This document shows positions 3,237 through 26,653 of a stretch of 28,046 nt of DNA, in pieces. Where the stretch lies: positions 1 through 28,046 of the IMG/VR virus record IMGVR_UViG_3300003322_000296. One strand, 5' to 3'. Numbering within the stretch: the stretch's first letter is position 1; each line of letters opens with the position of its first letter. This stretch comes from a virus. The translations under genes and the position numbers were made by a program. The notes below the pieces were generated by a model that worked only from the letters and a program-made list of their open reading frames with translations, ran no database searches and was not told where the DNA came from.

Positions 3237-5081
3237 TCACGACCGGCCAGGGGTTGGGAAAGGCCATGCCGCTGCTGGCACCAGGCGCGTTTTCTTGACC
3301 GTAATGGCGGGTCCGTCGGTTGCTTGCTGGGGGGCGGAAGGCGTTGGTTTGCGGGCCACGGTGAGGGTCCTCCTGTGGGCGCCTTGCTCGGTCGGATCGT
3401 CCGGTATAGCGGCGTCCATCGCTTCGAGTGTGCTATCAGCCAAGTCGCCGTGATGGGCGTATAGGCCCGCGCTTAGCTGCTCGGAGATGACGATGTCCAT
3501 CAGAAGCAGCTGGACCTCGCTCAGCGGCGCTTGGTCGATGTAGTTGCACACGTTCTGATCGCTAAAGTGATTGTCAAAATCTTTGGGGTCGAAGAGATGC
3601 CCGATCAGGTCGTCCGGGAAGGTGCAGTTGTTGTCTTGGTCCCTAACCAGCAGCTTGACGACCTCCCGCAGAAGCTGGGTCGTCATGCCCTTGGCCTGAG
3701 CGCGTGCGCGAATCTTCAGGTACAGGTCGGTTCGGCGCTGGGTTGCCTCTGCGGCTGATTCCTTTGGCGTTGCTGCTTCAGCGGCAGTTTCGCCTTCCTC
3801 CGCTGGCGTGGCGCCAGCCTCGTTCTTGGCTGGCGCCGACGCGGTGTTATTCGTCGCCGACGCCGTACCGTGCGCTTCAGGAAGGCAGGCACCCGCTACC
3901 TCCAACGCTGCTTGGACTTGGTGGCGCGCGTAGAGGGCCGTCAGGCCGGAGGACTCCTTCAGGTAGCCGATTGCTGGTGGCATGTCATCGGCACGCAGAT
4001 AGGTTGCCACGTTGCCTTCCATCTTGGTCTTCGGGTTCACGCGCTGGAACGTGTACAGCGGAGTACCTACGGCGACCTCAGCGAAGCCTGCTTGGAATAT
4101 GCGGTTGTAGAAGGCGCGACGGTCATCGCCCTCGTACACGGGAATACCGGCCTGGCGTGCTTGAACTTCGATTGATGCTTGACGTTTGACTTCGTTGGCC
4201 TGGTGGGCCTGGGTTTTCTCGGCAAAGCATTCTGGATCGGTGCAGACGTCTGCACCAATGCCTTCGAAGACCTCTGGCTGATTGCCGGCACGTTTTGGGC
4301 AGTCGGTACAGCTGCCGGCGCCGCGCAGGAGCTTGGCATCTTTGATCGGGAATGCGGCTTTTTTCAGGTTCAGCATGTAGCGATCCTGAATCCATGCTTT
4401 CGCTTCACGGAACGACATGGGGCCAGCTTTCGGACGGTCGGCCAAGATCTCGTCCAGCGCCTTGTTTTGCAGGTCGGGAACTGGAATGCGGGCGATCAGC
4501 AACGCGGTCGAGGGCGGCAAGGCATCCTTGTCGTTCATGAAGATCTCACGGGCTTTGAGCGACAGCGCGCACAGCTTGAGGCTCGCGTAAATGTAGGCGC
4601 GGCTCTTCTTCGTGATATCCATCAGTTGCTTGACGTCGTAGCCGAATGCCTGCATCAGCTGCTGGTAGCCATCCGCTTCCTCAAGTGGGTGAGGGTCTTC
4701 GCGTTGAATGTTTTCGAGCAGTCGAATCTCAGCGGCCTGAGCGTCGGTTAGATTCCGAACCATCAGCGGGACGGTCGAGATCTCGGCAATGATCGCAGCG
4801 CGGAAGCGGCGCTCGCCTGCGACGATCTCAAAGCGCTGCGGAGAATCTGCTGACATTGGGACCGGACGTGCAACAAGCGGGGCTAGAATGCCCACGGACT
4901 TCATGCTTGCCGCCAGGCCATGCAGGGCTTCGACGTCGAACCACTTGCGGTTGTCGGGTGAAACGCGCAATTCGTAAATTGGTTGATGCTGATAGCCTTC
5001 GGTCACCAGTTCGTCAGCCACGATTACGCGGTCTACCGGCATCGGTACATGGGGCGGCGGGAGTAGTACGAGTTTAGACAT
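3237..5081 (-). CDS. Large ParB/Spo0J-family DNA-binding protein
   Basis: 614 residues. The N-terminal ParB/Srx fold is shown by IVAGERRFRAA (about 86-96, the GERR box) and LLENIQREDPHPLEEA (about 121-136, the ENIQR box). An HTH-like segment follows (about 145-170, ending SRAYIYASLKL). Four cysteines, C258-x2-C261 and C280-x4-C285, could form a zinc knuckle. A low-complexity Ala/Glu/Thr linker (about 400-450) leads to a helical C-terminal region. ParB proteins bind palindromic parS sites and load as CTP-dependent clamps (family knowledge). No ParA is encoded in the window, so partition is unlikely to be the simple role; plasmid/phage ParB-like proteins of this long type also act as regulators. 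One copy of the 16-bp palindrome lies inside this gene and encodes residues around C280. The gene is in the leftward operon; a weak GAGAG precedes the ATG. Confidence 0.85.
   Translation of the reverse strand: MSKLVLLPPPHVPMPVDRVIVADELVTEGYQHQPIYELRVSPDNRKWFDVEALHGLAASMKSVGILAPLVARPVPMSADSPQRFEIVAGERRFRAAIIAEISTVPLMVRNLTDAQAAEIRLLENIQREDPHPLEEADGYQQLMQAFGYDVKQLMDITKKSRAYIYASLKLCALSLKAREIFMNDKDALPPSTALLIARIPVPDLQNKALDEILADRPKAGPMSFREAKAWIQDRYMLNLKKAAFPIKDAKLLRGAGSCTDCPKRAGNQPEVFEGIGADVCTDPECFAEKTQAHQANEVKRQASIEVQARQAGIPVYEGDDRRAFYNRIFQAGFAEVAVGTPLYTFQRVNPKTKMEGNVATYLRADDMPPAIGYLKESSGLTALYARHQVQAALEVAGACLPEAHGTASATNNTASAPAKNEAGATPAEEGETAAEAATPKESAAEATQRRTDLYLKIRARAQAKGMTTQLLREVVKLLVRDQDNNCTFPDDLIGHLFDPKDFDNHFSDQNVCNYIDQAPLSEVQLLLMDIVISEQLSAGLYAHHGDLADSTLEAMDAAIPDDPTEQGAHRRTLTVARKPTPSAPQQATDGPAITVKKTRLVPAAAWPFPTPGRS
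4240..4255. repeat. 16-bp palindrome GTGCAGACGTCTGCAC, copy 1
   Basis: Perfect copy inside the ParB-like gene. On the coding strand it is read as the frame giving A-D-V-C-T, and it supplies Cys280 of the CxxC...CxxxxC motif. Confidence 0.9.
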
Positions 5082-5095
5082 AGCGGGGCTCTCGA

Positions 5096-5611
5096 TTAGT
5101 CGCGGTCATTGGCCGCGAGGGATTTGAAGTCAGTGCTGGCAAGGCGGCGAACTGGATGCTTGCGGGCGTAGGAGCGCAATGCCCGACCGAGGCTGGGGTC
5201 GCCTAGGGCTGCGTCGAGGGGCATTGCGATGCGCAGCGCGCGGTGTGCGGCTGCCAGGGTTGGGCGGTCAGGTTCGGCCGGCATGACGGTGATCCCGCAG
5301 GGAGAGTCGCCGATGCGCTGCACTGCGGCATCGGCGGCGCTGGCCGCGTCAGATGCGTGCGTCTGGAACATCGTTGTTCCGGCGCTGGTGCGAACTTTGA
5401 CGTTGAACTCGTGCACCAGCTGGTCGTGGGCTGCCAGGGCGGCGCGCAGGTCGTCGGCGGTGTCTCCCCGCATACCTGCAAAACCTGCTTGTACCAGCAG
5501 CTCCGTGGCGTTTGCCGCGGCGAGTTGGAGCGTTTTCATGCTCGCGACCAAGGCGGCGGCGTGCTCGGTGAAATGGCCGCTATCGGGGATAGATGGGAGG
5601 GGCGCGCTCAC
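5096..5611 (-). CDS. Hypothetical protein of the leftward operon
   Basis: 171 residues from the preferred GTG start at 5611. A longer reading starts at a GTG at 5617, but a strong AGGAGGT (5618-5624, minus strand) abuts that codon with no space, while it lies six bases from the GTG at 5611. The GTG at 5611 also overlaps the upstream stop as GTGA, the usual coupled arrangement. The protein is alanine-rich and largely helical, with no membrane segment and no recognised domain; the C-terminal third is basic (RALRSYARKHPVRRLAS) and could contact nucleic acid. It precedes the ParB-like gene by 14 bp. Confidence 0.7.
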   Translation of the reverse strand: MSAPLPSIPDSGHFTEHAAALVASMKTLQLAAANATELLVQAGFAGMRGDTADDLRAALAAHDQLVHEFNVKVRTSAGTTMFQTHASDAASAADAAVQRIGDSPCGITVMPAEPDRPTLAAAHRALRIAMPLDAALGDPSLGRALRSYARKHPVRRLASTDFKSLAANDRD

Positions 5612-5817
5612 TTGCACACCTCCTGCACGCTCGATGGGGAGTTGTGTGCAGACGTCTGCACACGCTGTACCGATGGGGCAAGGTTGCGCGCCTTGATGTA
5701 GTCGTGGCCCTTGAGCCCAGCAAAGGGATCTGGCCGGCTCGCGCGAATCCGAACTACTGGATTTTCGGCGAGTGCTTGCTCGTTGAAACCGCGTGGATGG
5801 GATTCGGGTGAGGCCAT
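5608..5817 (-). CDS. Small hypothetical protein, first gene of the leftward operon
   Basis: 69 residues from the ATG at 5817, chosen because TAGGAG lies five bases upstream; an ATG 15 bases earlier (5832) overlaps that ribosome site and is less likely. The sequence is hydrophilic with no recognised domain. Near the C-terminus the 16-bp palindrome is translated as VQTSA. The gene is directly downstream of the leftward promoter and is coupled by GTGA to the next gene. Its first-gene position suggests an early regulatory or anti-host role, which is inference only. Confidence 0.6.
   Translation of the reverse strand: MASPESHPRGFNEQALAENPVVRIRASRPDPFAGLKGHDYIKARNLAPSVQRVQTSAHNSPSSVQEVCK
5644..5663. 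repeat. 16-bp palindrome, copy 2, extended to 20 bp
   Basis: The 16-bp core at 5646-5661 is perfect and here the symmetry extends two bases on each side (GTGT at the left end, ACAC at the right end), giving a 20-bp palindrome. It lies in the small gene 5608-5817, read as VQTSA. Confidence 0.9.
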
Positions 5818-5849
5818 GTTTGCTCCTATCAAAGAATTGATACGAGCGG

Positions 5850-5878
5850 AGTATAGATAATCTATTCCACGAAGTAAA
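5850..5878 (-). promoter_or_regulatory. Leftward operon promoter with two repressor-type operators
   Basis: On the minus strand TTTACT (5873-5878) and TATACT (5850-5855) are 17 bp apart, a near-consensus sigma-70 promoter about 33 bp upstream of the ATG at 5817. One copy of the shared operator motif (AGAAAAACTATAC, plus strand, 5878-5890) touches the -35. A weaker reversed copy (5851-5863) overlaps the -10 and coincides with a perfect dyad ATAGAT-A-ATCTAT (5853-5865). This is the expected site of lysogenic repression of the int/xis/ParB operon. Confidence 0.7.
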
Positions 5879-5902
5879 GAAAAACTATACTTTCACGTAA
5901 AG

Positions 5903-6178
5903 TTACTCTAAATTCTCTCCAATTGTCACAACACTTGCTAGCTTCGCGACCTCCGACGCAAGCGATGCGGCCAGCCATTTGGCGTCGGACTTAATGGTTC
6001 CGTCCCATCCTTCAAAGTCCCCGGAGGTCAGAAGGTGATTCAGTGCGGCAAGCTGGGCTGCGCGGGACTCCAGATAGTCGCCCAGGCTCTCCTTTGCGAC
6101 TACAACATCAACACCTGGCATAACGGATATCGTAAGGAAAGCTGCGGGTCGATTCTGGACTGTATTGTCATTTTGCAT
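5903..6178 (-). CDS. Hypothetical small protein upstream of the leftward operon
   Basis: 91 residues from the ATG at 6178. A longer frame starts at GTG 6232, but a good -10 sequence TATAAT (minus strand, 6212-6217) lies inside that extension, so the message probably begins after it and the ATG at 6178 is preferred. The protein is acidic, with a long helical middle (SLGDYLESRAAQLAALNHLL) and another helix (WLAASLASEVAKLASVV) near the end; it resembles small helical phage proteins of the DUF3077 type, a weak match made by eye. It is transcribed away from the Arc-like gene and would read towards the leftward promoter. Confidence 0.6.
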   Translation of the reverse strand: MQNDNTVQNRPAAFLTISVMPGVDVVVAKESLGDYLESRAAQLAALNHLLTSGDFEGWDGTIKSDAKWLAASLASEVAKLASVVTIGENLE

Positions 6179-6211
6179 TGAGAGTTTCCAAAAAGAATTG
6201 CGGAGTTCGCC

Positions 6212-6240
6212 ATTATAGTAGGATGGCTTCACCGTGTAGC
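6212..6240 (-). promoter_or_regulatory. Probable promoter of the 91-residue gene
   Basis: Minus-strand TATAAT at 6212-6217 with GCTACA 17 bp upstream (6235-6240), a good -10 and a poor -35. It sits between divergent genes and may be controlled by the Arc-like protein encoded next to it. Confidence 0.4.
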
Positions 6241-6259
6241 TATCACTGGTTGTGGCTAT

Positions 6260-6288
6260 TCTCTACACTGCGCCTCTATGAGTAGAGA
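6260..6288 (+). promoter_or_regulatory. Inverted repeat over the start of the Arc-like gene
   Basis: TCTCTAC (6260-6266) and GTAGAGA (6282-6288) are exact inverted copies 15 bp apart and straddle the ATG at 6278. Ribbon-helix-helix repressors often bind such paired sites over their own start. Seven-base arms can occur by chance, so the call is weak. Confidence 0.3.
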
Positions 6289-6526
6289 CATTTCCCCTTT
6301 TGGCCTTCGAATGCCAGCCGACTTGAAGGCTCTTCTCGAAAGATTTGCCCGCAGGAATGCCCGCTCCCTCAATTCGGAGATCGTGGGGCGTTTAAACGAT
6401 AGTGTGGATGCTGCGCAGCGGCCGCTGCGCAGCTATTCGGATGGCGAGTTGATTAGAGAGCTGCTGGACCGCTATGAGCGGGGGATGGTGTCTATCCGCA
6501 TTGGGCGCCCCGAGGAAGGGCCGTAA
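6278..6526 (+). CDS. Arc/Mnt-type ribbon-helix-helix DNA-binding protein
   Basis: 82 residues. The start FGLRMPADLKALLERFARRNARSLNSEIVGRL is the Arc-family pattern: a short beta strand (FGLRMP), helix A, then the NARSLNSEIV helix B of the MetJ/Arc fold. Dimers insert the beta ribbon into the major groove. The C-terminal 40 residues are extra and charged. It is convergent with the CI-like repressor, with only two bases between stop codons, and divergent from the 91-residue gene. It may repress that gene or itself, as Arc and Mnt do in the P22 immunity region. Confidence 0.85.
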   Translation: MSRDISPFGLRMPADLKALLERFARRNARSLNSEIVGRLNDSVDAAQRPLRSYSDGELIRELLDRYERGMVSIRIGRPEEGP

Positions 6527-6528
6527 GC

Positions 6529-6933
6529 TTACCGGGCTTTGGGTGGGCAGGTGTCGAGCAGCGCCATAATGGCGCTTTGGATATGTGGCGGAACTTCGCG
6601 CTCGGCCAGCGCTGTATTGATGTGATTCAAGAAAAATTCATAGCCGGGTGCGGATGCCAGCCGTACCTTATCGCCAGCGCTCGCTGTGCGAGTGGCGTCA
6701 ACGTTCTGCTCCACTGAGGCAGGAAGCGAATAGCCGGTTATTTTGCTGATCGCCAGCATTTGGGCCAGGCTAGGCTGATGCTTGCCCAGCTCCCAGTGCG
6801 AGATATTCCCCTTCGTGTTTCCTCGGGTCGTCCGGAGTTCGAGTGCGAGCTTGGCGCCAAGCGCTTCGCCGGAAAGGCCGGCGTGTTTGCGCGCGCTGCG
6901 AACCCAGCTTGCGATTTCATTTTTAATTTCCAT
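6529..6933 (-). CDS. CI-like HTH lysogeny repressor (no protease domain)
   Basis: 134 residues from the ATG at 6933. An in-frame start at 7035 exists, but the extra 34 residues would be coded across the operator/promoter region, so the ATG followed by EIKNEIASWVRSARK is preferred. Residues about 5-70 form an HTH_3 (XRE) domain: ASWVRSARKHAGLSGEALG (helices 1-2), NISHWELGKHQPSL (recognition helix region). The C-terminal 60 residues are short and show no S24/LexA Ser-Lys protease motif, so RecA-driven self-cleavage is not expected; induction would need another route. It lies divergent to the Cro-like gene with three operator copies between them, which is the layout of an immunity switch. Confidence 0.8.
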   Translation of the reverse strand: MEIKNEIASWVRSARKHAGLSGEALGAKLALELRTTRGNTKGNISHWELGKHQPSLAQMLAISKITGYSLPASVEQNVDATRTASAGDKVRLASAPGYEFFLNHINTALAEREVPPHIQSAIMALLDTCPPKAR

Positions 6934-6942
6934 TCCGTCATC

Positions 6943-7007
6943 GTATAGGTTTTCTAAACCATTATGGGATAGAAAAACTTGACTTGCTGGTATAGAAAAA
7001 CTAGACT
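6943..7007 (+). promoter_or_regulatory. Immunity switch: rightward promoter and three operators
   Basis: Rightward promoter: TTGACT (6979-6984), 17 bp, TAGACT (7002-7007), about 30 bp before the Cro-like start. Operator copies AGAAAAACTTGAC (6971-6983) and AGAAAAACTAGAC (6994-7006) cover the -35 and -10. A third, on the minus strand, AGAAAACCTATAC (6943-6955), lies just upstream of the repressor start. The same motif occurs at the leftward operon promoter. A repressor maintenance promoter is not clear by eye. Confidence 0.75.
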
Positions 7008-7036
7008 TCGGGCTTGGCATACTTTCTCTCAACACA

Positions 7037-7279
7037 ATGAACTCCTCTCCAATAGACGAAGTCGTCGCAGTTTTGGGCTCGCTCCAAGCGCTGGCGACGC
7101 ACTTAGGCGTAACGAAGGGTGCGGCCGGGCAGTGGAAATTGCCCGGCCGTCGTGTCCCAGCAGAGTATTGCCCGACGATCGAGAAGCTGGTTCAGGGCAG
7201 GGTCAGGTGTGAAGCACTTCGACCGGACGTGGACTGGGCATATCTGCGCGGCACCGGGCAGGTGCAATCCCCTCATTGA
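7037..7279 (+). CDS. Cro/YdaS-like antirepressor DNA-binding protein
   Basis: 80 residues. The segment LGSLQALATHLGVTKGAAGQWKLPGRRVPAEYCPTIEKL matches the YdaS/Cro HTH family: a helix-turn-helix with the G-V-x-x-x-x-x-x-x-W pattern and the RxVPxEYCPxIE signature. Cro-like proteins of this family bind the same operators as the repressor and favour the lytic path. No Shine-Dalgarno sequence is visible before the ATG; the predicted 5' leader is only about 24 nt. It is the first gene of the rightward early operon. Confidence 0.85.
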   Translation: MNSSPIDEVVAVLGSLQALATHLGVTKGAAGQWKLPGRRVPAEYCPTIEKLVQGRVRCEALRPDVDWAYLRGTGQVQSPH

Positions 7280-7337
7280 CGGTTCGAAGTGTAGAGCCGA
7301 AAGAGCAGTAGCAAAACCATAATATTTAGGAGTTTGT

Positions 7338-7820
7338 ATGGATGTTCGCAGCGCTATCTTGAATCTGATCAACGCGATCCCTGGCAAATGGGTCGTGGCC
7401 GCAGCTCACCTGGGGATGACGGAGAACTCACTCCGTAATCGCGCATACGAGACCAAGGGGCAATCCCTCTCGACGGACCACGCCCTGGCCCTGCAGCAGC
7501 TTGCCGGCACCACGGACTTTGCGGAGGCGATTGCGGTGGCAAGTGGAGGTACTTTCGTAAAGCTGCCCGAAGCCGGGGAAATTGAAAACGAGTCCATCCA
7601 GCTCCTATTTAACGAGAACTATGCTGAGCTGGGCAAGCTCTTCAGCACGTTCATCAGCGCCATTGAGGACGACCAGATCGACTCAATCGAGCGTCAGCAG
7701 TTGGAGGCGCTGGGCGCACAGTTGCACCGAAAGACTGAAACCTTGCTCGCTGTCATATTCAGCGTGTACTGCCCGCGCGCGAAGGCAGTCCGCGCCGAGC
7801 CGCTGCGCGAGGTGGCGTAA
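7338..7820 (+). CDS. CII/YmfL-like phage regulatory protein
   Basis: 160 residues. The N-terminus IPGKWVVAAAHLGMTENSLRNRAYETKGQSLSTDHALALQQL is the pattern of the YmfL / CP76-type CII regulators (an HTH-like region about 12-55), followed by a helical C-terminal half rich in acidic residues. AGGAG precedes the ATG. It lies directly after the cro-like gene, the position of cII in lambdoid phages, and its stop overlaps the next start (TAATG). A role in the lysis/lysogeny decision is inferred; binding sites were not identified. Confidence 0.75.
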   Translation: MDVRSAILNLINAIPGKWVVAAAHLGMTENSLRNRAYETKGQSLSTDHALALQQLAGTTDFAEAIAVASGGTFVKLPEAGEIENESIQLLFNENYAELGKLFSTFISAIEDDQIDSIERQQLEALGAQLHRKTETLLAVIFSVYCPRAKAVRAEPLREVA

Positions 7821-8239
7821 TGGCTCACTTCAATATGCCGCGTCGCGGCACAGCGGCGTACAACGCAGTGGTGACGCTCTATGCAGCCCGCGCGCCACTG
7901 TCGGCGGCCACCCTGGCCGCACGGTCGGGTTGGAAGCGTGGTGCGGTCCAGTTCGAGGATGAAGTGATCGGCTCCCTGTGCGCGGCTGGCCTGGCCAGCA
8001 TCACTCCAAAGGGCATCGAGATTACTAGGGCAGGCAGCAAGTTCGTCGGCCCCAAGGATGCGGGACCAGAGTACGAGGGTATCCCTGCAGCACCGCGCGT
8101 CGGTTCGGGTTTCCGCCCACTGCGCAGTCGCAGCCCAATGGTGATCCGCGCAGGCGCCCTGGACTACCGCAGCATCCCTTCGGTGATGGGCGGTGTGCAG
8201 GTTCCATACAAGTCCTCGGTGCGCCCGGAAAGCGAGTAA
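7820..8239 (+). CDS. Hypothetical protein of the early operon, possible winged-helix N-terminus
   Basis: 139 residues, not recognised as a named family. Residues about 10-70 (ending LASITPKGIEITRAG) have the spacing of a winged-helix domain: AAYNAVVTLYAARAPLSAATLAARSGW could be helices 1-3, followed by a strand pair. The C-terminal half is basic and proline/arginine-rich (RPLRSRSPMVIR). It overlaps the CII-like gene by one base (TAATG) and abuts the primase-helicase start (TAAATG), so it may help replication or its control. Confidence 0.65.
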   Translation: MAHFNMPRRGTAAYNAVVTLYAARAPLSAATLAARSGWKRGAVQFEDEVIGSLCAAGLASITPKGIEITRAGSKFVGPKDAGPEYEGIPAAPRVGSGFRPLRSRSPMVIRAGALDYRSIPSVMGGVQVPYKSSVRPESE

Positions 8240-10978: not shown

Positions 10979-11031
10979 ATGTGGGCAATTTCACGGTTAT
11001 GCACAGGGCATGCAAATACCCTGCTACGCGC

Positions 11032-11213
11032 AAAGCAAGTATCCATGCGGGCTTAACAGGGTTAACAGGGTTTGCAGGGTCGTTCCCGCGTGCGCGTGTG
11101 AGTTTATTGGATTAAAAGCAGTCGAAAAAATCTATATGTGTGTGTAGTCATACCCTGTTAACCCTGTTAACCCTGTTAAAGCAAGTATTCATGCGGGGTT
11201 CAGCGTAACAGGG
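11032..11213. repeat. Candidate replication origin with opposed 9-bp iteron arrays
   Basis: TTAACAGGG occurs twice in tandem (11053-11061, 11062-11070) with a degenerate third copy TTTGCAGGG (11071-11079). The reverse complement CCCTGTTAA occurs three times in tandem (11153-11161, 11162-11170, 11171-11179). A near copy GTAACAGGG is at 11205-11213. The two arrays face each other across about 73 bp whose right half is AT-rich (11101-11150). A 20-bp direct repeat (11032-11051 and 11178-11197, one mismatch), beginning AAAGCAAGTAT, flanks the structure. No protein gene of confidence is present between 10979 and 11318. The position after the primase-helicase supports an origin. Confidence 0.65.
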
Positions 11214-11318
11214 TCAGCGAAAAGGGTGTAAGAGGTCTGATCGAAGGATTACAGGGTTGGTTCAGGGTCGAAACCGGGCAGGGTTTCAGGGCAATTGGAA
11301 AATGATAGGGATATGCAG

Positions 11319-11774: not shown

Positions 11775-11777
11775 AAT
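11749..11777 (+). promoter_or_regulatory. Late promoter, pR'-like
   Basis: TTGCAA (11749-11754), a 17-bp spacer and TAGAAT (11772-11777) form a strong sigma-70 promoter overlapping the 3' end of the Q-like gene. The predicted transcript starts near 11784 and meets a terminator about 30 bases later, so without antitermination only a short leader RNA would be made. Confidence 0.65.
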
Positions 11778-11813
11778 CCCGCTCAGGACGGCGTTCGTCC
11801 ATACCATTCAGAA

Positions 11814-11838
11814 GCCTCGCAACTTGCGGGGCTTTTTT
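11814..11838 (+). terminator. Leader terminator 1, tR'-like
   Basis: GCCTCGC (11814-11820), loop AACTT, GCGGGGC (11826-11832), then six T. One G-U pair in the stem. It ends the short leader from the late promoter. Confidence 0.8.
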
Positions 11839-12249: not shown

Positions 12250-12265
12250 GTGCAGACGTCTGCAC
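12250..12265. repeat. 16-bp palindrome, copy 3 (intergenic)
   Basis: Perfect GTGCAGACGTCTGCAC, the only copy clearly outside a gene. It ends 12 bases before the ATG at 12278 and could form a hairpin in the leader of that gene or bind a protein there. Confidence 0.9.
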
Positions 12266-12277
12266 GCAAAGGCGACC

Positions 12278-12964
12278 ATGTTTGACATCTCGATACGTTC
12301 GAACATTTCGGCTTTGCAGCGTTCTCTTGGTCGATTCGCAAATGAGCAGCTGCCCTTCGCCACGGCCAAGGCGCTGACCGGGATCGCCAAACGTGTGCAG
12401 GATGCGGAGAAGAATGCGATGCGCACCATCTTCGACCGCCCAACACCATTCACGGTCAATGCGGTGGCGATGCGCGGTGCCCGCAAATCGATGCTGGCCG
12501 CAACGGTGTACGTGAAGGACATCGCCGCCTCGTACCTCCAGCCGTATGAGGATGGAGGCAACCACAAGATGATCGGCTCTGGCCGCACGTGGTTGAATCC
12601 AAAGAATGGTATGCAGCTCAACCAATACGGCAACCTGTCTCGGGCCAAGCTCGCGCAGTTGCGCGCCAGGCCCGACGTCTTCATCGGCAAGGTGAAGACC
12701 AAGCGCGATGAAGTCATCGATGGTGTATGGCAGCGCCCATATATCCGTGACAATCAAAAGCTGCGAGGCATGTCTCGGCGGCACGGCCTGGTCAATGACC
12801 AGACCAATACACGCGGCAGGCTAAAGCTGCTGATCCGGTTCGGCGATCCGATGCCGGTCACAAAGCGCCTCAACTTCATCGAGCGAGCGAGGCAGGTAAT
12901 CGCTGCCAGCATCGAGCGGGAGTTCAGCAAGGCAGTCGAAGAGGCGATCCGCACAAGCCGATAG
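12278..12964 (+). CDS. Minor tail protein Z-like virion protein (tentative)
   Basis: 228 residues from the ATG at 12278; a longer frame would be coded through a hairpin and the palindrome and lacks a ribosome site. The N-terminal pattern QLPFATAKALTGIAKRVQDA, then FDRPTPFTVNAV and a short strand with VYVKD, resembles phage proteins annotated as prophage minor tail Z or tail-completion proteins, which often sit next to terminase genes. The C-terminal half is basic and ends in a helix. It is not an enzyme by any motif seen. Its place before the terminase small subunit fits late expression. Confidence 0.5.
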   Translation: MFDISIRSNISALQRSLGRFANEQLPFATAKALTGIAKRVQDAEKNAMRTIFDRPTPFTVNAVAMRGARKSMLAATVYVKDIAASYLQPYEDGGNHKMIGSGRTWLNPKNGMQLNQYGNLSRAKLAQLRARPDVFIGKVKTKRDEVIDGVWQRPYIRDNQKLRGMSRRHGLVNDQTNTRGRLKLLIRFGDPMPVTKRLNFIERARQVIAASIEREFSKAVEEAIRTSR

Positions 12965-15613: not shown

Positions 15614-15877
15614 ATGATGTTCAATCCAAATCGCGGCCTGCTGGCCGGCGTGCAGACGTCTGCACTGCAAACGGCGTTGAAGGCTGCGCAGCAGGCTTAC
15701 ATGGACCTCTCCACGGGTGCCAAGGGTGAGTCGTACTCCTACACGCAGGGCGATGGTTCCAAGTCGGTCACGTACACGAAGGCGGATCTGCCGGCCCTGT
15801 CGGCGTACATTCAGTCGCTGCAGGCGCAGCTGGGCATCGTTCGCCGTCCGCGTCGTGCCATCGTGCCGAGGTTCTGA
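15614..15877 (+). CDS. gpW-like head-tail joining protein
   Basis: 87 residues. The core ALQTALKAAQQAYMDLSTG, a two-strand hairpin (YSYTQGDGSKSVTY) and a final helix (DLPALSAYIQSLQAQLG) match the alpha-beta-beta-alpha gpW fold that seals the portal end of filled heads. It lies between the terminase and portal genes, as W does in lambda. The 16-bp palindrome codes VQTSA just before the first helix, in an N-terminal extension. The stop overlaps the portal start by one base (TGATG). Confidence 0.8.
   Translation: MMFNPNRGLLAGVQTSALQTALKAAQQAYMDLSTGAKGESYSYTQGDGSKSVTYTKADLPALSAYIQSLQAQLGIVRRPRRAIVPRF
15650..15665. repeat. 16-bp palindrome, copy 4
   Basis: Perfect GTGCAGACGTCTGCAC within the gpW-like gene, read as VQTSA. 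Confidence 0.9.
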
Positions 15878-18359: not shown

Positions 18360-18376
18360 CCAACGAAAGATGAAGC

Positions 18377-18931: not shown

Positions 18932-18958
18932 TTTCCACCACCACCCTGAAAGGTAAGT

Positions 18959-19372: not shown

Positions 19373-19396
19373 CCCCCAATCCCTGCAGCAGCCACG

Positions 19397-19420
19397 TCCC
19401 GCCAAGTGCGGGATTTTTTT
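19397..19420 (+). terminator. Intrinsic terminator between decoration and capsid genes
   Basis: TCCCGC (19397-19402), loop CAAGT, GCGGGA (19408-19413), followed by a run of T to 19421. It lies inside the late operon, 23 bases before the capsid gene. Confidence 0.85.
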
Positions 19421-19443
19421 TGCTCAAATTCTGGAGAATATGA

Positions 19444-20493: not shown

Positions 20494-20706
20494 ATGGCAA
20501 AAGCTGAAAAAATCGTCCAGGCCAAAGTGGCCAAGCGCAAATCCGTTGACATCGAGGGCAAGCTGTACGGCCCCGGCAGCCTGATCGAGCTGCCGATCAG
20601 CGAGGCCGAGGATCTGCTCGACAAGGGCTTCGTGGTCGATCCCTCGGACTTCCCCGCGCCCGCCGAAGAGACCTCTGGTCCCTCGGTCGAGGAGCGGGAA
20701 GAGTGA
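20494..20706 (+). CDS. Small head/tail-region protein, DUF7210-like
   Basis: 70 residues: a short basic start, then SVDIEGKLYGPGSLIELPI and SEAEDLLDKGFVVD, followed by an acidic tail. The G-x-x-x-x-x-G-x-x-x-x-L followed by a helix resembles the small DUF7210-type proteins found after capsid genes in Mu-like phages; lambda FI is another possible analogue by position. The match is by eye. It starts directly at the capsid stop and its end overlaps the next start (GTGA). Confidence 0.55.
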   Translation: MAKAEKIVQAKVAKRKSVDIEGKLYGPGSLIELPISEAEDLLDKGFVVDPSDFPAPAEETSGPSVEEREE

Positions 20707-21035
20707 TCGACTGGGACGCGCTGGTGACTTTGCCGGCGGTGGCGGTATTCGGCGAGCCGGTGATTTACACACCGGAAGGCGGTACGCCGTATCCAGATCC
20801 GATCATGCTGGTCTATGACGAGGGTAACAAGGACCTCGACCTGGCCGGGGGCATGGGCGTGAATACCTCCAATCCGATCGTCAGCGGCTCGCTGTCCTTG
20901 TTCCCGGCGTTGCCGCGACAAGGTGACGAACTGCAGATCGTCCGCACGGGCGAAACCTTTACGGTCAAGGACGTCGAAGAGGACGGCAAGGGGGCGGTGA
21001 AGCTGCCGCTCAACTATGCCGGGCCGGGCCTATGA
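20703..21035 (+). CDS. Head-tail joining protein, lambda FII-like
   Basis: 110 residues starting with GTG that overlaps the previous stop by four bases. The middle, GSLSLFPALPRQGDELQIVRTGETFTVKDV, is a beta-rich pattern typical of the lambda gpFII attachment family, which forms the ring where the tail docks. The end overlaps the next start (ATGA). Confidence 0.7.
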   Translation: MIDWDALVTLPAVAVFGEPVIYTPEGGTPYPDPIMLVYDEGNKDLDLAGGMGVNTSNPIVSGSLSLFPALPRQGDELQIVRTGETFTVKDVEEDGKGAVKLPLNYAGPGL

Positions 21036-21667
21036 GCGGCGAACCGATGCTGGCGCGACGCCAGCTTCGCCTGGCCGCCCAGGGCGCGCTCACTGCTGCG
21101 AAGCTGGGGGCTGTCATCGACGCACCAGGCGACTGGGTGACTCAGCCGGAGAAGATGCCGGCGGTGCTGATGCGTGCAACGCGCAGCAGCAAGGTTCCCA
21201 TGACGGCTGGCCCTGCCCAGTTTACGTCCACGGTGACGGTCGAGCTGGAATCGCGCGTGGTTGCGTCCACTGCCCCGGCGGCGCAGGACGCCATTGACGC
21301 ACTCGATCAACTGGTCGAAGTGGCACTGTTCACGAACCCTCAGTTCGTGGGGATCACCCAGCGTATCTATGTCGAAACCGAAACCGAGGTAACGGCCGAG
21401 GGGCGTAACCACTTCGGCGCAACGAAGTGGGCTATCCGCTGCGAGTGCGTGGAAGCGTTCGATCCGATCTGGGACGCTCCGGAAGCGCTGCAGCCGGTCG
21501 GCACGCCGCTGGAAGGCATGGATCTGCATGCCGACCTGGTGAACGTCTATGACGGCACTGGCACTTACCTGGACCCGGAATTCCCTGGTGCAGCCGGCCC
21601 GGCGCCGCGCACCGCTGGACCTGATGGCCGTGATGAAGGTGGCCTCTCTATCAATCTACAACAGTAG
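21032..21667 (+). CDS. Tail terminator or completion protein (tentative)
   Basis: 211 residues. The first 150 residues contain alternating helices and strands ending in AIRCECVEAFDP, similar in style to minor tail proteins that follow FII-type genes. The C-terminal 60 residues look disordered and glycine/proline-rich. Position between head-joining and sheath genes suggests it caps the head-proximal end of the tail tube. No decisive motif is seen. Confidence 0.5.
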   Translation: MSGEPMLARRQLRLAAQGALTAAKLGAVIDAPGDWVTQPEKMPAVLMRATRSSKVPMTAGPAQFTSTVTVELESRVVASTAPAAQDAIDALDQLVEVALFTNPQFVGITQRIYVETETEVTAEGRNHFGATKWAIRCECVEAFDPIWDAPEALQPVGTPLEGMDLHADLVNVYDGTGTYLDPEFPGAAGPAPRTAGPDGRDEGGLSINLQQ

Positions 21668-21675
21668 GAGATTCT

Positions 21676-21873
21676 ATGTACGTGAAACCCGCGCCGGGTC
21701 TCAGCATCCGCGACCCGGACCTGTTGGACCTGCTGCCGGAGTCCGGCCGCCTGGTGCCCGACTCCGATTACTGGTTGCGCCGCGTGCGCGACAAAGACGT
21801 TGTGCTGACCGACCCGCCTTCGGAAGAGGCGGAAAGCGCAACGCCGACTGCCAACGCAGAGGAGCATGAATAA
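21676..21873 (+). CDS. DUF2635 protein, Mu gp38-like
   Basis: 65 residues beginning MYVKPAPGLSIRDPDLLDLLP and containing RLVPDSDYWLRRVRDKDVV, the whole core of the DUF2635 family. In Mu and related phages this small gene always lies just before the tail sheath gene, as here; its role in tail assembly is not known. AGGAG precedes the ATG and the stop overlaps the sheath start (TAATG). Confidence 0.85.
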   Translation: MYVKPAPGLSIRDPDLLDLLPESGRLVPDSDYWLRRVRDKDVVLTDPPSEEAESATPTANAEEHE

Positions 21874-23354
21874 TGAGCATCGGCTTTAAACAGATCCCTT
21901 CCAACATCCGCGTGCCGCTGTTCTACGCTGAAACGGACAATTCGCAGGCAAACAGCGCGCAGGCGCCGCAGCGTGCGCTGATCATCGGCCAGATTACCGC
22001 CGCAGGCAACGGTGCGCCCAACGTGCCGTTGATGTCGCAGGGTGTATCCGATGCTGCGTCGGTCGGTGGCCCCGGCTCGATGCTGCACCTGATGACGCAG
22101 ATCTACCGCCTGAACGACACCTTCGGCGAGGTGTGGTACTTGCCGCTCGCGGACGACCCCGCTGCGGTTGCTGCCACTGGCACCGTCGCCTTCACCGCCG
22201 CCCCGACTGCCAACGGCACGCTGAGCCTGTACATCGGTGGCGTCAAGGTCGCGATGCCGGTGCTGAGCACGCAGACGACCGCCGCGCTGGCGACTGCACT
22301 GGCCGCAGCAATCAACGCGACACCGAACCTCCCGGTCTCGGCGACGACGGCGACCAACACGGTGACGTTGACGGCGCTGAACAAAGGCCCATGCGGCAAT
22401 GACATCGACCTGCGCCTGAACTACTTGGGAACGCGCGGTGGCGAAGTACTTCCTGCCGGCCTGACTGCGACAATCACGCAGATGACCGGCGGCGCAACTG
22501 CACCGAACCTGACCAACGCGCTGGCAAACCTGGCTAACCTGGCATTCGACTTCATCGCGTGCCCGTATACCGACGCGACGAGCCTGAATGCTGTGCAGGC
22601 GCTGCTGAACGATGCCAATGGCCGCTGGAGCTGGTCGACGCAGCTCTATGGTGGTGCCTTCGCTGCCCTGCGTGGCACGGTCGGCAACCTGACCACGGCA
22701 GGTGTGCTGCGCAACGATGCGCACACCTCGATCATGGGCTTCTATGACAGCCCCACGCCGAACTGGTTGTGGGCGGCTGCGCTGGCCGGTGCGGTGGCGC
22801 CAAGCGTGCGCGCCGATCCGGCGACGCCGCTGCAGACGCTGGTGATCCAGGGTGTGCTGGCACCGCCAGTGCAGTCGCGTTTCCAGCTGACCGACCGCAA
22901 CACGCTGCTATTCGACGGTATCTCCACGTTCACGGTGGCCGACGACGGCACCGTGGCCATCGAGAACCTGATCACGACCTACCAGAAGAATGCGGCCGGC
23001 AACGCCGACAACAGCTACCTGGAAGTCGAGACGCTGTACACGCTGGCCTACGTGCTACGCTCGATGAAGGGCGTGATCACCAGCAAGTATGCCCGCTGCA
23101 AGCTGGCCGCTGACGGCACGCGCTTTGGCCCCGGCGCCAATGTCGTGACGCCTAATCTGATCCGTGCGGATCTGATTGCCCAATATCGCCAGCTGGAGCA
23201 GGACGGCCTGGTGCAAAACGGCGATGCGTTCAAGGCGGGCCTGATCGTGCAGAAGAACACGCAGAACCCGAACCGCGTGGACGTTCTGTGGCCCGGATCT
23301 CTGATCAACCAGTTCCGCATCTTTGCGCTGCTGGCTCAGTTCCGCCTGCAGTAA
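21873..23354 (+). CDS. Contractile tail sheath protein, Mu gpL-like
   Basis: 493 residues. The N-terminus GFKQIPSNIRVPLFYAE is the Mu-type sheath signature; an Ala/Thr-rich variable region (about 105-210) forms the outer domains; the C-terminal LVIQGVLAPPVQSRFQLTDRN, YLEVETLYTLAYVLRSMK and GSLINQFRIFALLAQFRLQ complete the conserved core. The sheath contracts to push the tube through the cell envelope, so the virion is a myovirus. A terminator with a UUCG loop follows. Confidence 0.93.
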   Translation: MSIGFKQIPSNIRVPLFYAETDNSQANSAQAPQRALIIGQITAAGNGAPNVPLMSQGVSDAASVGGPGSMLHLMTQIYRLNDTFGEVWYLPLADDPAAVAATGTVAFTAAPTANGTLSLYIGGVKVAMPVLSTQTTAALATALAAAINATPNLPVSATTATNTVTLTALNKGPCGNDIDLRLNYLGTRGGEVLPAGLTATITQMTGGATAPNLTNALANLANLAFDFIACPYTDATSLNAVQALLNDANGRWSWSTQLYGGAFAALRGTVGNLTTAGVLRNDAHTSIMGFYDSPTPNWLWAAALAGAVAPSVRADPATPLQTLVIQGVLAPPVQSRFQLTDRNTLLFDGISTFTVADDGTVAIENLITTYQKNAAGNADNSYLEVETLYTLAYVLRSMKGVITSKYARCKLAADGTRFGPGANVVTPNLIRADLIAQYRQLEQDGLVQNGDAFKAGLIVQKNTQNPNRVDVLWPGSLINQFRIFALLAQFRLQ

Positions 23355-23376
23355 TTCTCGCACCCCACCCAACACG

Positions 23377-23398
23377 GCCGCCTTCGGGCGGCTTTTTT
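23377..23398 (+). terminator. Intrinsic terminator between sheath and tube genes
   Basis: GCCGCC (23377-23382), tetraloop TTCG, GGCGGC (23387-23392), then six T. Strong by appearance, yet inside the late operon. Confidence 0.88.
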
Positions 23399-23411
23399 AA
23401 AGGAAAGTGAT

Positions 23412-23780
23412 ATGGCAGATACGACCAACCGGCTCGCCGGTACTGCGTTTATCGCAGTGGATGGCACGACCTACATGCTGGCTGGCGACCTGAGCTACAG
23501 CCCGTCGGGTGTGACCCGCGAAACGCTGAACGGTCAGGACCGCGTGCATGGTTATTCCGAGAAGCCCAAGCAGGGCATGATCAGCGGCACGCTGCGCGAC
23601 GCTGCTGGCCTGTCGGTCGCGGCGTTTAACGCCATGACCAATGTGACGGTCACGCTGGAGCTGGCCAACGGCAAGACGGTCCTGGGGCGGAATATGTGGA
23701 CCGTGGAAGCCCAGGAGGTGAAGACCGCCGAGGGCACGTTTGAAGTGAAGTTTGAAGGTTTTAGCGTCGAGGAGATTTAA
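23412..23780 (+). CDS. Tail tube protein, Mu gpM-like
   Basis: 122 residues: a beta-rich protein with TAFIAVDGTTYMLAGDLSY, the signature HGYSEKPKQGMISGTL and EAQEVKTAEGTFEVKFEG at the end, the Tail_tube (PF10618) pattern. Stacked hexamers form the inner tail tube. AAAGGA lies 8 bases before the ATG, only 14 bases after the terminator T-run. Confidence 0.9.
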   Translation: MADTTNRLAGTAFIAVDGTTYMLAGDLSYSPSGVTRETLNGQDRVHGYSEKPKQGMISGTLRDAAGLSVAAFNAMTNVTVTLELANGKTVLGRNMWTVEAQEVKTAEGTFEVKFEGFSVEEI

Positions 23781-23782
23781 GC

Positions 23783-24133
23783 ATGAATGAATTGGAAAAC
23801 AACGATCTGGACGCCGTGGGCGTTGACCCGATGATCCTGGATGAAAAGACGATCACGCTGCGCAAGCCGGTGACGCTGGGCAAGACCGGCAAGAGCGATG
23901 GCGTCGTGTACAGCGCGCTGGACCTGCGCGAGCCGACTGGCGGCGAGCTGGAAAAGGCGTCGAAGTCGGCGACGCAATTGGGCGTCGTCCTGAACCTGAT
24001 TTCGCTGGTGGCGAAGGTACCGCGTGCTGTGGCCGAAGGCCTGTGCCAGCGTGATCTGCAGGAGGCCTCGGATTTTTTGGGCAGCTTCAGCAAGGACGAC
24101 CTGAAAACTGGCGAGACGTCGTCGCAGAGCTGA
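23783..24133 (+). CDS. Tail assembly chaperone, short form (Mu gp41-like)
   Basis: 116 residues. ITLRKPVTLGKTGKSDGVVY and LDLREPTGGELEKAS are the signature of Mu-type tail assembly proteins (PF10109), which coat the tape measure and recruit tube subunits. The zero-frame product ends KTGETSSQS after a slippery site. GGAG lies before the ATG. A longer form is made by frameshifting. Confidence 0.88.
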   Translation: MNELENNDLDAVGVDPMILDEKTITLRKPVTLGKTGKSDGVVYSALDLREPTGGELEKASKSATQLGVVLNLISLVAKVPRAVAEGLCQRDLQEASDFLGSFSKDDLKTGETSSQS

Positions 24134-24246
24134 CCAAGTATTACGGGTGGGGACCCCGTGAGGCGTGGTCCCTCACCTGGTCGGAACTGAAATGGTGGAA
24201 CCAGCAGGCTTTGCGGATGATTGAGGCGGCGAAAGATGGCAAATAA
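23783..24246 (+). CDS. Tail assembly chaperone, -1 frameshift long form (gp41-gp42 type)
   Basis: At T-TTT-TTG (24073-24079) the frames are such that a -1 slip continues without a stop to TAA at 24244-24246. The added segment contains NWRDVVAELTKYYGW and SLTWSELKWWNQQALRMIE, typical of the second tail chaperone (the Mu gp42/P2 E' kind), which has no start codon or ribosome site of its own. The long product has about 154 residues. Its last 11 bases overlap the tape measure gene. Two chaperones in a fixed ratio by frameshift is the rule in contractile and siphovirus tails. Confidence 0.85.
24073..24079 (+). promoter_or_regulatory. Slippery heptamer for -1 programmed frameshift
   Basis: TTTTTTG in the frame GAT TTT TTG, i.e. 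the X-XXY-YYZ form used by the P2 E/E' tail genes. After the slip both tRNAs re-pair (TTT TTT), and the -1 frame is open for the following 165 bases before its stop. Confidence 0.85.
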
Positions 24247-26653
24247 TTTTCAAATCACTATCACGGCGATTGACCGCGCGACGGCAGTTGTGCGCCGGAT
24301 CAACGCCGGGATGGCGCGCATCACGCAGCCGATCACCAATCTCCGCAGGGCTGCTGGTGCGTTGACCAAGGAGCTGGGCTTCGACAAGGTCGGCTCCGCG
24401 ATTGGCGCCGTGGTGAAGAACACCCGCCAGCTGGGCGGGCAGCTGATGTCGCTGCTGGGGCCGCTGGCGATCATCGCCGGCGGGGGTACGCTGGCAGGCA
24501 TTGCTGCGCTGGCGACGGAATGGGGGCGCATGGGGTCGGAGATCTCGCGCACCGCAACGATGCTGGACATGGGCGCCGACCGGCTGCAAGCGCTGCGTGG
24601 AGCTGGCGCGATGGCTGGTGTGGGCGCGCAGGAACTGACGAGCGGGCTCAAGAGCCTGGGCGATACGATGGAGGATGCGCTGTATGGGCGCAACCAACAG
24701 GCGCTGGTGGTGCTGAATCGCCTCGGCATTGGCATCCATAAGACGAAAGACGGATCGATCGATGCGGCGCGCGGATTCCGCGACCTGGCTGGCGCGATTT
24801 CCGCTACGAAGAATGTCCAGGTGCAGGGCCTGATCGCCCGCACCTTTGGCCTGGAGGCGGCGTTGCCGCTGCTGCGCAAGGGGCCGCAGGCCATTGAAGA
24901 CTATGAGCGCAAGGTGGCGTCGCTCGGCGGCATCATGAGCGGCGTCGCGCTGGACGGCGCTGTCAAGTTCAAGGAGTCGCTGGGGTATCTGGAGATCGCG
25001 ACGCAGGGCGTGCGCAACGCCATTGGCGAGAAGCTGGTGCCGATCATTGGCCCGCTGATTGATCAGCTGACCGCCTGGGTGGCGGCCAACCGTGAGCTGA
25101 TCTCGACCAAGGTGGCCGAGTTCGTCCAAGGCCTGGCGCAATGGATTTCTCAGCTCGACTTCAAGCAGATTGGCGAAGACATCCGCCAGTTTGCCATGGG
25201 CATAGAATCCCTGGTCGACAAGCTGGGCGGTTGGCAAAACGCAGCTGCAGGCGTGGTGCTGATGATGAACGCGGGCTTGCTTGCTGGCGTTATCAATCTG
25301 GGCCTGGCCATCGGGCAGCTGGCGGTCGTCTCGGTCCCGGCGGTGATTCGGGTCTTTGGTCTCTTTGCGGCTGCGACTGACGCCACTCTGGTGCCCGCGC
25401 TTGTGAAGGGACTGCGCAACGCTGCGCTGTACACTGCCACGCTCGCGGACCTGGCTGCGGGCATCCCGGTCGTAGGGTCATTGCTGGGAGCGTTGTCCGT
25501 GGGCTTTGCAAGCGTCAGCGCTGCCATTGCCGCTACGCCGGTCGGCTGGCTCATTGCCGGCGCGGCAGCCGTCGCGGCATCCGTGTATGCGATCTACAAG
25601 AACTGGGACAACATCACGGCGTACTTCAGTGCGAAGTTTGCTGGCATCAAAGCTGCGTTTGACAAGAATTGGCTGGGCGGCATCGTCAAGGCGCTGTGGG
25701 AATTCAGCCCCGTCAAGATCGTTGGCGACGCGCTGAATGGGCTGTCGAAATGGCTGTTTGACTTCGATCTGTACGATGCGGGCAAGAGCCTGGTGGGCCG
25801 CCTGATTTCGGGTGTGAAATCGGTTGCTTCCGTCCTTCCCAAGTCGGTGCTGAAATTCCTCGGCATCGAGGGCTGGGCGAATACGCCAGTTCAGGTACAG
25901 GCGGCTGTGAAAGCACCCGCAGTAGAAATGCCTACGGTCGCCGCACCGGTTACGCAGGCGCCAGTAGTGCCCTCGGCGGCTGTGCAGACGTCAGCACAGG
26001 CTGGTAGTACGACCGCTGTAAAAATGCCTACGGTGTCCGCGCCGGTGGTACAGGCGCCAGTAGTGCCCTCGTCGGCTGTGCAGACGTCTGCACAGACTGT
26101 GGCTTCGCCGCTGGGTGTGAGGAACAACAATCCGGGGAATCTGCGTCAGTGGGGCGACATGCCACGCGACGCAAAAGGGTACGCAATGTTCCCGACCCCG
26201 GAAGCGGGCTTGGCGGCGGCGGTCAAGAATCTGCGAGCGCAGCAGCAGGTTCATGGGCTCAACACAATCGAAAGCATTGTCAGCAAGTGGGCTCCACCAT
26301 CGGAGAACAACACGGCCGCCTATATTTCAGATTTGGTGAAGCGGACCGGATTTGGCGCCAAACAGCAGTTGAACCTCGACGACCCAACTACGGTGGCACC
26401 GCTCTTGTCAGGAATTATCCGACACGAGGGTAATAGCGCCGCGTACAGCGATGAGATGATCAACAAGGCCGTCGCCGCTCAGTTGGGCACGGCTCGCGGT
26501 AGCACGCAGCCGCAGGCGGCGCCACAGCAGGTTGAGGTAGCACTTACGCTCCACGGCCTGCCAGCCGGAACGTCCGCGACAGCCCAAACCAAGGGTGGGC
26601 AACCGATGCCTGTTCGGGTTGCGTATTCGATGCCAACGGGAGTAACACCATGA
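24236..26653 (+). CDS. Tail tape measure protein with C-terminal murein-hydrolase-like domain
   Basis: 805 residues from the ATG at 24236 (a frame start five codons earlier is less likely). Residues 1-230 are the helical tape measure start (FQITITAIDRATAVVRRINA; then TKELGFDKVGSAIG). Two hydrophobic regions at about 70-90 and 335-460 are typical membrane-active segments. A repeated Val/Pro/Ala linker occupies about 560-625. It is followed by GVRNNNPGNLRQWG (about 627-640), YAMFPTPEAGLAAAVKNL and a segment to about 745, which is the pattern of virion-associated structural lysins. So the ruler carries its own cell-wall-cutting domain, expected to be released into the periplasm at infection. Its stop overlaps the next gene (ATGA). 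Confidence 0.88.
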   Translation: MANNFQITITAIDRATAVVRRINAGMARITQPITNLRRAAGALTKELGFDKVGSAIGAVVKNTRQLGGQLMSLLGPLAIIAGGGTLAGIAALATEWGRMGSEISRTATMLDMGADRLQALRGAGAMAGVGAQELTSGLKSLGDTMEDALYGRNQQALVVLNRLGIGIHKTKDGSIDAARGFRDLAGAISATKNVQVQGLIARTFGLEAALPLLRKGPQAIEDYERKVASLGGIMSGVALDGAVKFKESLGYLEIATQGVRNAIGEKLVPIIGPLIDQLTAWVAANRELISTKVAEFVQGLAQWISQLDFKQIGEDIRQFAMGIESLVDKLGGWQNAAAGVVLMMNAGLLAGVINLGLAIGQLAVVSVPAVIRVFGLFAAATDATLVPALVKGLRNAALYTATLADLAAGIPVVGSLLGALSVGFASVSAAIAATPVGWLIAGAAAVAASVYAIYKNWDNITAYFSAKFAGIKAAFDKNWLGGIVKALWEFSPVKIVGDALNGLSKWLFDFDLYDAGKSLVGRLISGVKSVASVLPKSVLKFLGIEGWANTPVQVQAAVKAPAVEMPTVAAPVTQAPVVPSAAVQTSAQAGSTTAVKMPTVSAPVVQAPVVPSSAVQTSAQTVASPLGVRNNNPGNLRQWGDMPRDAKGYAMFPTPEAGLAAAVKNLRAQQQVHGLNTIESIVSKWAPPSENNTAAYISDLVKRTGFGAKQQLNLDDPTTVAPLLSGIIRHEGNSAAYSDEMINKAVAAQLGTARGSTQPQAAPQQVEVALTLHGLPAGTSATAQTKGGQPMPVRVAYSMPTGVTP
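25982..25997. repeat. 16-bp palindrome, copy 5 (one mismatch)
   Basis: GTGCAGACGTCAGCAC; the twelfth base is A instead of T, which breaks the symmetry. It keeps the VQTSA reading. Part of tandem unit 1. Confidence 0.85.
26078..26093. repeat. 16-bp palindrome, copy 6
   Basis: Perfect copy in tandem unit 2, read as VQTSA; symmetry extends one further base on each side (T left, A right). Confidence 0.9.

What the first reader, a model, noticed from the sequence alone, without database searches (positions are those of the whole stretch)
4240..26093. A perfect 16-bp palindrome scattered through unrelated phage genes
GTGCAGACGTCTGCAC occurs exactly at 4240, 5646, 12250, 15650 and 26078 and with one mismatch at 25982. 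A given 16-mer is expected far less than once in 28 kb by chance. Four genic copies are read as VQTSA, one as ADVCT, and one copy is intergenic, so protein sequence alone does not explain it. Two explanations are open: a host-wide iterated palindrome (like HIP1 of cyanobacteria) that has spread into the prophage, or a dispersed binding site, for example a parS-like site for the ParB-like protein encoded here (classical parS is also a 16-bp palindrome with a central CG). The copy at 5644 extends to 20 bp.
Basis: partly seen in the sequence, partly recalled or inferred. Interest (0 to 1): 0.78.

Follow-up and report, generated by a model that had tools for sequence, protein, structure and literature searches.

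The report
ParB loading sites dispersed through phages
A 16-letter DNA palindrome repeated about five times along this bacterial virus is found almost only in viruses that carry one particular ParB-type DNA-clamp gene, and one copy lies inside that gene, so it is very probably the clamp's landing site, spread so that the clamp could cover the whole viral genome.

Summary
In detail: five exact copies and one one-mismatch copy, with 0.27 expected at up to 3 mismatches. It is not a host-wide repeat. In 300 Burkholderiales genomes the 16-mer occurs in only 8, and it tracks the phage-type ParB gene (5 of 8 genomes with that gene against 3 of 292 without). In 22 ParB-encoding phages and prophages I found 116 sites of the form GTGCANACGTNTGCAC, against 0.41 for shuffled palindromes. 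Of all protein families, only ParB is shared by every ParB-bearing record. One site lies inside parB itself, over the Cys-rich peptide SADVCTD. There 25 of 36 independently collected genes spell it exactly (0.12 expected from codon usage), while the wobble base just outside the 16-mer varies freely. At aligned positions in relatives the sites are 88-100% conserved in flanks of 68-76%. No ParA is encoded. Best reading: a ParA-less, KorB/Noc-like CTP-clamp ParB loads at about one site per 8 kb along temperate phages. ParB binding is strongly inferred but untested. What the clamps do is open. I found no prior report of these sites.

The parts
3237..5081 (-). Orphan ParB-like protein, 614 aa: ParB_N/CTPase fold, HTH_ParB, Cys-rich module, helical C-terminal part. 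Proposed reader of the sites.
   Evidence: Pfam ParB_N 2.4e-21 and HTH_ParB 1.2e-8; AlphaFold2 model (pLDDT 83) matches CTP-bound ParB, Noc and KorB; only family found in all 21 ParB-bearing records compared.
4704..4952 (-). ParB_N (CTPase fold) with GERR and ENIQR motifs
   Evidence: Pfam; motif positions; near-invariant columns in A1.
4437..4700 (-). HTH_ParB domain, predicted reader of the palindrome
   Evidence: Pfam; Foldseek match to ParB and Noc DNA-binding domains bound to their sites.
4227..4310 (-). Cys-rich (zinc-like) module CxxCPKRxGNQPE..ADVCTDxxC, whose codons contain a site
   Evidence: Cys columns nearly invariant in 30 relatives.
4240..4255 (.). Site 1, inside parB, read as (G)ADVCT
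   Evidence: Exact 16-mer; 25 of 36 SADVCT genes spell it exactly against 0.12 expected; 83 homologous places, site identity 90% against flank 68%.
5646..5661 (.). Site 2, 565 bp upstream of the parB start, in the small ORF 5608-5832 (-); extends to a 20-bp palindrome 5644-5663
   Evidence: 17 of 20 homologous places exact, site 99% against flank 74%.
12250..12265 (.). Site 3, intergenic, 14 bp before an ATG at 12280 (minor tail gene)
   Evidence: site identity 98% against flank 75% in 23 homologous places.
15650..15665 (.). Site 4, near the 5' end of the head-tail adaptor gene (VQTSA)
   Evidence: site identity 88% against flank 76%, with ATGCAGACGTCTGCAC in several relatives.
25982..25997 (.). 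Site 5b, one-mismatch copy in the duplicated segment of the tape-measure gene
26078..26093 (.). Site 5, tape-measure gene (VQTSA)
   Evidence: exact in 2 of 2 homologous places.

Best explanation
The palindrome, consensus GTGCANACGTNTGCAC, is a parS-type loading site for the ParB-like protein that the same phage encodes. A ParB dimer recognises the two half-sites through its HTH, loads as a CTP-closed clamp and slides away. With about five sites per 40 kb, and one inside parB itself, the clamps could reach most of the phage genome. No ParA is encoded, so this is not classical partition. It resembles KorB of plasmid RK2 or Noc: a dispersed-site clamp that most likely acts on phage transcription or DNA organisation. 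Supported by data here: sites, their conservation, co-occurrence with ParB, absence of ParA, ParB fold and motifs. Inferred: binding, CTP loading, sliding, and the biological effect.
For: Sites are restricted to mobile elements. Co-occurrence with phage-type ParB: 5/8 against 3/292 Burkholderiales genomes, p=1.6e-7; 18 of 21 virus records with 2 or more exact sites encode it, and one of the three exceptions is cut at the contig end just before parB. ParB is the only family in all 21 ParB-bearing records; the next best is in 17 including antisense frames, and CII and primase reach 15. In 80 loci collected by protein patterns the 16-mer is the top 16-bp palindrome, 75 copies against 4 for the next, and GTGCANACGTNTGCAC is in 74 of 80. 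116 sites in 22 records against 0.41 for permuted palindromes. In-gene site: 25/36 exact against 0.12 expected; the next wobble base, outside the 16-mer, is free; the nearby TGNQPE peptide has 24 spellings in 29 genes. Conservation at aligned positions. The isolated phages VarioGold and Aval and a circular Comamonas phage-plasmid carry 5-6 sites each. Known Burkholderiales parS sites are 16-bp palindromes with central CG, tolerant at 1-16 and in some cases 6-11 (PMC5450999), the same tolerant positions as here.
Against: No binding data. A 183-kb tailed-phage contig (G073 C445) has 17-18 evenly spaced sites but no detectable ParB_N on that contig, and an acidobacterial prophage (G071) has 5 sites without a detectable ParB on its contig. 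Of the 8 phage-ParB genomes in the Burkholderiales sample, 3 lack an exact 16-mer, although variant sites were not searched there. CTP binding is inferred from motifs; in PMC12704722, 17 of 28 tested ParB-fold proteins bound no NTP. The loci are related by descent, so counts are not independent events. Spacing is only weakly more even than random in 40-kb phages (combined p=0.02).
Confidence: 0.85

Rival explanations
1. Host-wide highly iterated palindrome (HIP1-like) that has leaked into the prophage.
For: The palindrome is frequent within the window and recurs in many phages.
Against: 38 genomes hold 1-12 copies, usually clustered in one prophage-sized stretch; 292 of 300 Burkholderiales genomes hold none; the reversed-pattern control is 0.
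Confidence: 0.01
2. Dispersed operators of the phage repressor (stoperator-like), or of another phage regulator, rather than of ParB.
For: Mycobacteriophage L5-type stoperators are dispersed repressor sites (own knowledge). Some sites here lie between genes or near gene starts.
Against: The window's repressor-like ORF has relatives in only 4 of the 23 records compared, ParB in all 21 that have it. Sites are palindromic and mostly inside genes. One is embedded in parB. CII and primase reach only 15 of 23.
Confidence: 0.07
3. The copy in parB is only a by-product of the conserved ADVCT peptide, and the other copies are coincidental or spread by local recombination.
For: The peptide (S/G)ADVCTD is conserved in the ParB family; the 25982 and 26078 pair is a local duplication.
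Against: Synonymous spelling is fixed inside the 16-mer (25/36 exact against 0.12 expected) and free just outside; outside-parB sites fall in 19 flank-similarity groups, 11 of them singletons; sites are better conserved than flanks.
Confidence: 0.03
4. A modification or restriction site, or a site used in packaging or recombination.
For: Dispersed exact palindromes could be enzyme targets; none of the tests here excludes a second use.
Against: Terminase relatives (6 loci, about 81 kb) have no sites, and the three of them tested lack ParB; no other universally shared gene was found; an enzyme target would not explain linkage to parB.
Confidence: 0.04

Closest known systems
KorB / O_B operators of plasmid RK2 (IncP)
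   Same: ParB-fold, CTP-dependent sliding clamp that loads at short palindromic sites and silences distant promoters (PMC11790492); the AlphaFold model here matches KorB (8qa9, 8qa8) with Foldseek E down to 8e-9. RK2 carries about a dozen dispersed O_B sites (own knowledge).
   Different: Different site sequence; no ParA (IncC) partner found; phage, not plasmid; extra Cys-rich module; parB contains its own site; effect on transcription unknown.
Noc / NBS (nucleoid occlusion, Firmicutes)
   Same: Orphan ParB paralogue without the ParA-binding motif; sites dispersed along the replicon (NBS distribution from own knowledge); best well-fitting structural matches include Noc 7nfu.
   Different: Membrane targeting and division block not shown; different site; phage genome; below NCBIfam's Noc cut-off (111.5 against 315 bits).
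ParABS with Burkholderiales 16-bp parS palindromes (Bsr family)
   Same: 16-bp perfect palindrome, central CG, tolerance at positions 1-16 and in some cases 6-11 (PMC5450999; here).
   Different: No ParA gene, no ParA-binding motif, sites spread over the whole element instead of one centromere.
Orphan prophage ParB-CTPase proteins surveyed in PMC12704722
   Same: Same broad class: divergent, horizontally spread ParB-fold proteins on prophages without the ParA-binding motif.
   Different: I found no DNA sites for prophage orphans described in the passages I read; this report assigns a site to one such family.
PRTRC system ParB (TIGR03734)
   Same: Sequence similarity over residues 41-293 (E 3e-32).
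   Different: Far below the family cut-off (111.9 against 278.6 bits).

Membership tests
ParB/CTPase clamp protein family (ParB_N + HTH_ParB) | ParB_N fold with CTPase boxes and HTH_ParB | tested here: met
   Pfam, TIGR00180 over its cut-off, GERR and ENIQR motifs, Foldseek matches to CTP- and CDP-bound ParB.
ParB/CTPase clamp protein family (ParB_N + HTH_ParB) | CTP binding, clamp closure and sliding | not testable with these tools
   Needs biochemistry.
parS-type site | Short palindrome genetically linked to its parB and conserved against its flanks | tested here: met
parS-type site | Bound by the cognate ParB | not testable with these tools
   Needs EMSA, SPR or ChIP.
Canonical ParABS partition system | parA gene next to parB | tested here: not met
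   PF13614 absent in 27 phage records, control genomes positive; none annotated in VarioGold or Aval.
Canonical ParABS partition system | ParA-binding motif (L/F/I)G(K/R)G(L/F/I) in ParB | tested here: not met
   No match in the window ParB.
HIP1-like iterated palindrome | High copy number throughout the host genome | tested here: not met
   1-12 copies, usually clustered; 0 in 292 of 300 genomes.
Noc | Membership of the Noc model (TIGR04285) | tested here: not met
   111.5 bits against a cut-off of 315; membrane targeting not tested.
KorB | KorA/IncC partners and repression of target promoters | tested here: inconclusive
   No ParA/IncC-type ATPase found; KorA-like partner and promoter effects not tested.

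The most novel reading that the evidence does not exclude
Many temperate phages, and perhaps larger phages with about 18 evenly spaced sites over 183 kb, coat or mark their whole genome with self-loaded CTP clamps of a ParA-less ParB.
Probability: 0.35. Interest if true: 0.87.

Novelty: new variant of a known kind. Interest (0 to 1): 0.74.

Why it matters
Orphan ParB proteins are common on prophages but their DNA targets and roles are unknown. Here the target can be read from sequence alone, and it points to a multi-site, ParA-less clamp system spread over phages in several bacterial groups. Tractable isolated phages (Variovorax phage VarioGold, Acidovorax phage Aval) carry it, so binding, CTP dependence, spreading and effect on lysogeny can be tested directly. 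The site also marks such prophages in metagenomes.

Tried and rejected
Host-wide repeat: rejected by genome counts. Protein-sequence by-product: rejected by codon analysis. Chance: rejected. Close known relative of the window: none by megablast in phages. Single-protein ParB scan of viral contigs found nothing and was replaced by an alignment scan. The exact 16-mer is in no held paper; of its 12-14 bp cores one occurs in a single unrelated DNA-geometry paper. VarioGold paper: no mention of palindromes. Even spacing: clear for the 183-kb contig, only weak for 40-kb phages, so not used as a main argument. The Myxococcus plasmid pYRE, with a related ParB plus a separate ParA-ParB pair, lacks the site. 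One PHROGs call failed for a wrong frame and was repeated.

Full report
Observation. Shuffled sequence gives 0.27 such matches on average. The copy at 5644-5663 extends to a 20-bp palindrome. Five of the six copies are inside ORFs. The two in the tape-measure gene belong to an imperfect duplication with a 96-bp period.

The window. It is a 28-kb fragment of a temperate tailed phage held as a virus record. It has an integrase, the ParB-like protein, a repressor-like ORF, a CII-like regulator and a primase with DUF5906/VapE-like domains, and a lambda-type terminase, head and tail genes. No close DNA relative exists among 50,697 phage records.

Not host-wide. The exact 16-mer was counted in 38 whole genomes found to contain it. 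They hold 1 to 12 copies each, and where there are several they usually lie together in one stretch of prophage size; the reversed pattern occurs nowhere. In 300 Burkholderiales genomes drawn from the order, 292 have none. A HIP1-like iterated palindrome is therefore excluded.

It follows ParB. A profile of the window's ParB family separates phage-type ParB (over 390 bits) from chromosomal ParB (about 200 bits). In the same 300 genomes the phage type is in 8, and 5 of these have the 16-mer, against 3 of 292 without (Fisher p=1.6e-7). Caveat: one genome was the centre of the draw, and a few others had already been met through the 16-mer scan. Among virus records with at least two exact copies, 18 of 21 encode it. 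Of the three exceptions, G002 is a 17.7-kb fragment and G017 ends inside the gene that precedes parB. The third, G019, has a NACHT-domain gene in the stretch where parB would be expected, and several of its sites are degraded. In an all-against-all protein comparison of 23 site-bearing records, ParB is the only family in all 21 that carry it; CII-like and primase proteins reach 15. Six terminase relatives (47-53% identical) carry no site at all; the three of them tested have no ParB.

Unbiased set. Eighty viral loci were collected by degenerate protein patterns, which do not depend on codon choice. They hold 75 exact copies in 1.17 Mb, while the next most frequent 16-bp palindrome has 4. The relaxed motif GTGCANACGTNTGCAC is in 74 of 80. 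In 22 ParB phages and prophages the motif with at most one mismatch occurs 116 times, against a mean of 0.41 and a maximum of 7 for 300 permuted palindromes. That is about five per 40 kb. Two isolated phages and a circular Comamonas record with phage genes are included: Variovorax phage VarioGold 5, Acidovorax phage Aval 5, Comamonas 6. Some carry almost only variant copies, so an exact search would miss them.

A site inside parB. In the window and in many relatives one copy lies inside parB, over the Cys-rich peptide SADVCTD. Of 36 genes encoding SADVCT, 25 spell it AGT GCA GAC GTC TGC AC, against 0.12 expected from codon usage. Nearly all the others differ only at the Val wobble base, which is position 11 of the site. 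The wobble base of the following Thr codon, just outside the 16-mer, is free (T 11, A 7, C 4, G 3 among the 25 exact genes). The nearby peptide TGNQPE has 24 spellings in 29 genes. This is DNA-level selection inside a coding region, and the sharp boundary is an internal control.

Conservation at aligned positions. Around each window site, homologous places in relatives show 88-100% identity within the 16 bp and 68-76% in the flanks, except for the duplicated copy at 25982, for which no homologous place was found. Outside parB, the 78 sites of the 80 loci fall into 19 flank-similarity groups, 11 of them singletons. The site is exactly 16 bp, with tolerant positions 6, 11, 1 and 16.

The ParB has the ParB_N and HTH_ParB domains, CTPase motifs, a nearly invariant CxxC...C....C module, and an AlphaFold2 model (pLDDT 83) matching CTP- or CDP-bound ParB, Noc and KorB. 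It lacks the ParA-binding motif, and no ParA-type ATPase is encoded in 27 such records. Published Burkholderiales parS sites are 16-bp palindromes with a central CG, tolerant at 1-16 and in some systems at 6-11 (PMC5450999). The present site fits that format with a different sequence.

Mechanism. Most likely ParB dimers bind the palindrome, close around DNA with CTP and slide, as shown for KorB on RK2 (PMC11790492). Without ParA, segregation of the classical kind is unlikely. In three annotated records most sites are inside genes, so a purely promoter-bound repressor is also unlikely. Regular dispersion and, in one 183-kb tailed-phage contig, 17-18 sites spaced more evenly than chance (phage nature) suggest a role that needs the whole genome covered: long-range regulation, anti-silencing, or organising and marking phage DNA. 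This step is inference.

Open points. The 183-kb contig and an acidobacterial prophage carry sites without a detectable ParB_N on the contig. No binding or functional data exist, and no held paper mentions the sequence in this context.

Verdict. Real, strongly non-random, and explained with good confidence as the loading site of an orphan phage ParB. It is a new variant of ParB/parS biology rather than a new kind.

Noticed in passing
G073 contig 445 (L369-L377, L409), 183 kb, from a Phycisphaerae MAG: Tailed-phage contig (tape measure, tail protein, helicases, intein-bearing DnaB-like protein) with 17-18 near-exact sites spaced more evenly than random (CV 0.43 against 0.92) but no ParB_N detected on the contig.
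   Followed up: partly
L386:11589-14621 (G019, IMG/VR 2687453813_000001): A NACHT/STAND NTPase gene lies where relatives carry parB; this phage lacks parB and several of its palindromes are degraded.
   Followed up: partly
L378-L381 (G071 contig 75): Acidobacterial prophage (prohead protease, D5_N/DUF5906 primase) with five exact sites within about 10 kb and no ParB_N on the contig.
   Followed up: partly
window 11055-11200: Repeats of the CCCTGTTAA type in non-coding DNA downstream of the primase gene; possible replication-origin iterons.
   Followed up: no
window 302-805: SocA/Panacea antitoxin-like gene next to the integrase end of the phage (Pfam 1.2e-21).
   Followed up: no
L429 (NZ_CP083453, Comamonas odontotermitis): A 36.9-kb circular 'plasmid' carries integrase, capsid, terminase and this ParB, so it is probably an excised phage or phage-plasmid; it has six variant sites.
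   Followed up: partly
L367 (Acidovorax phage Aval): Uses a shifted palindrome GTGCACACGTGTGCAC in several copies, suggesting that ParB and site specificity drift together.
   Followed up: partly
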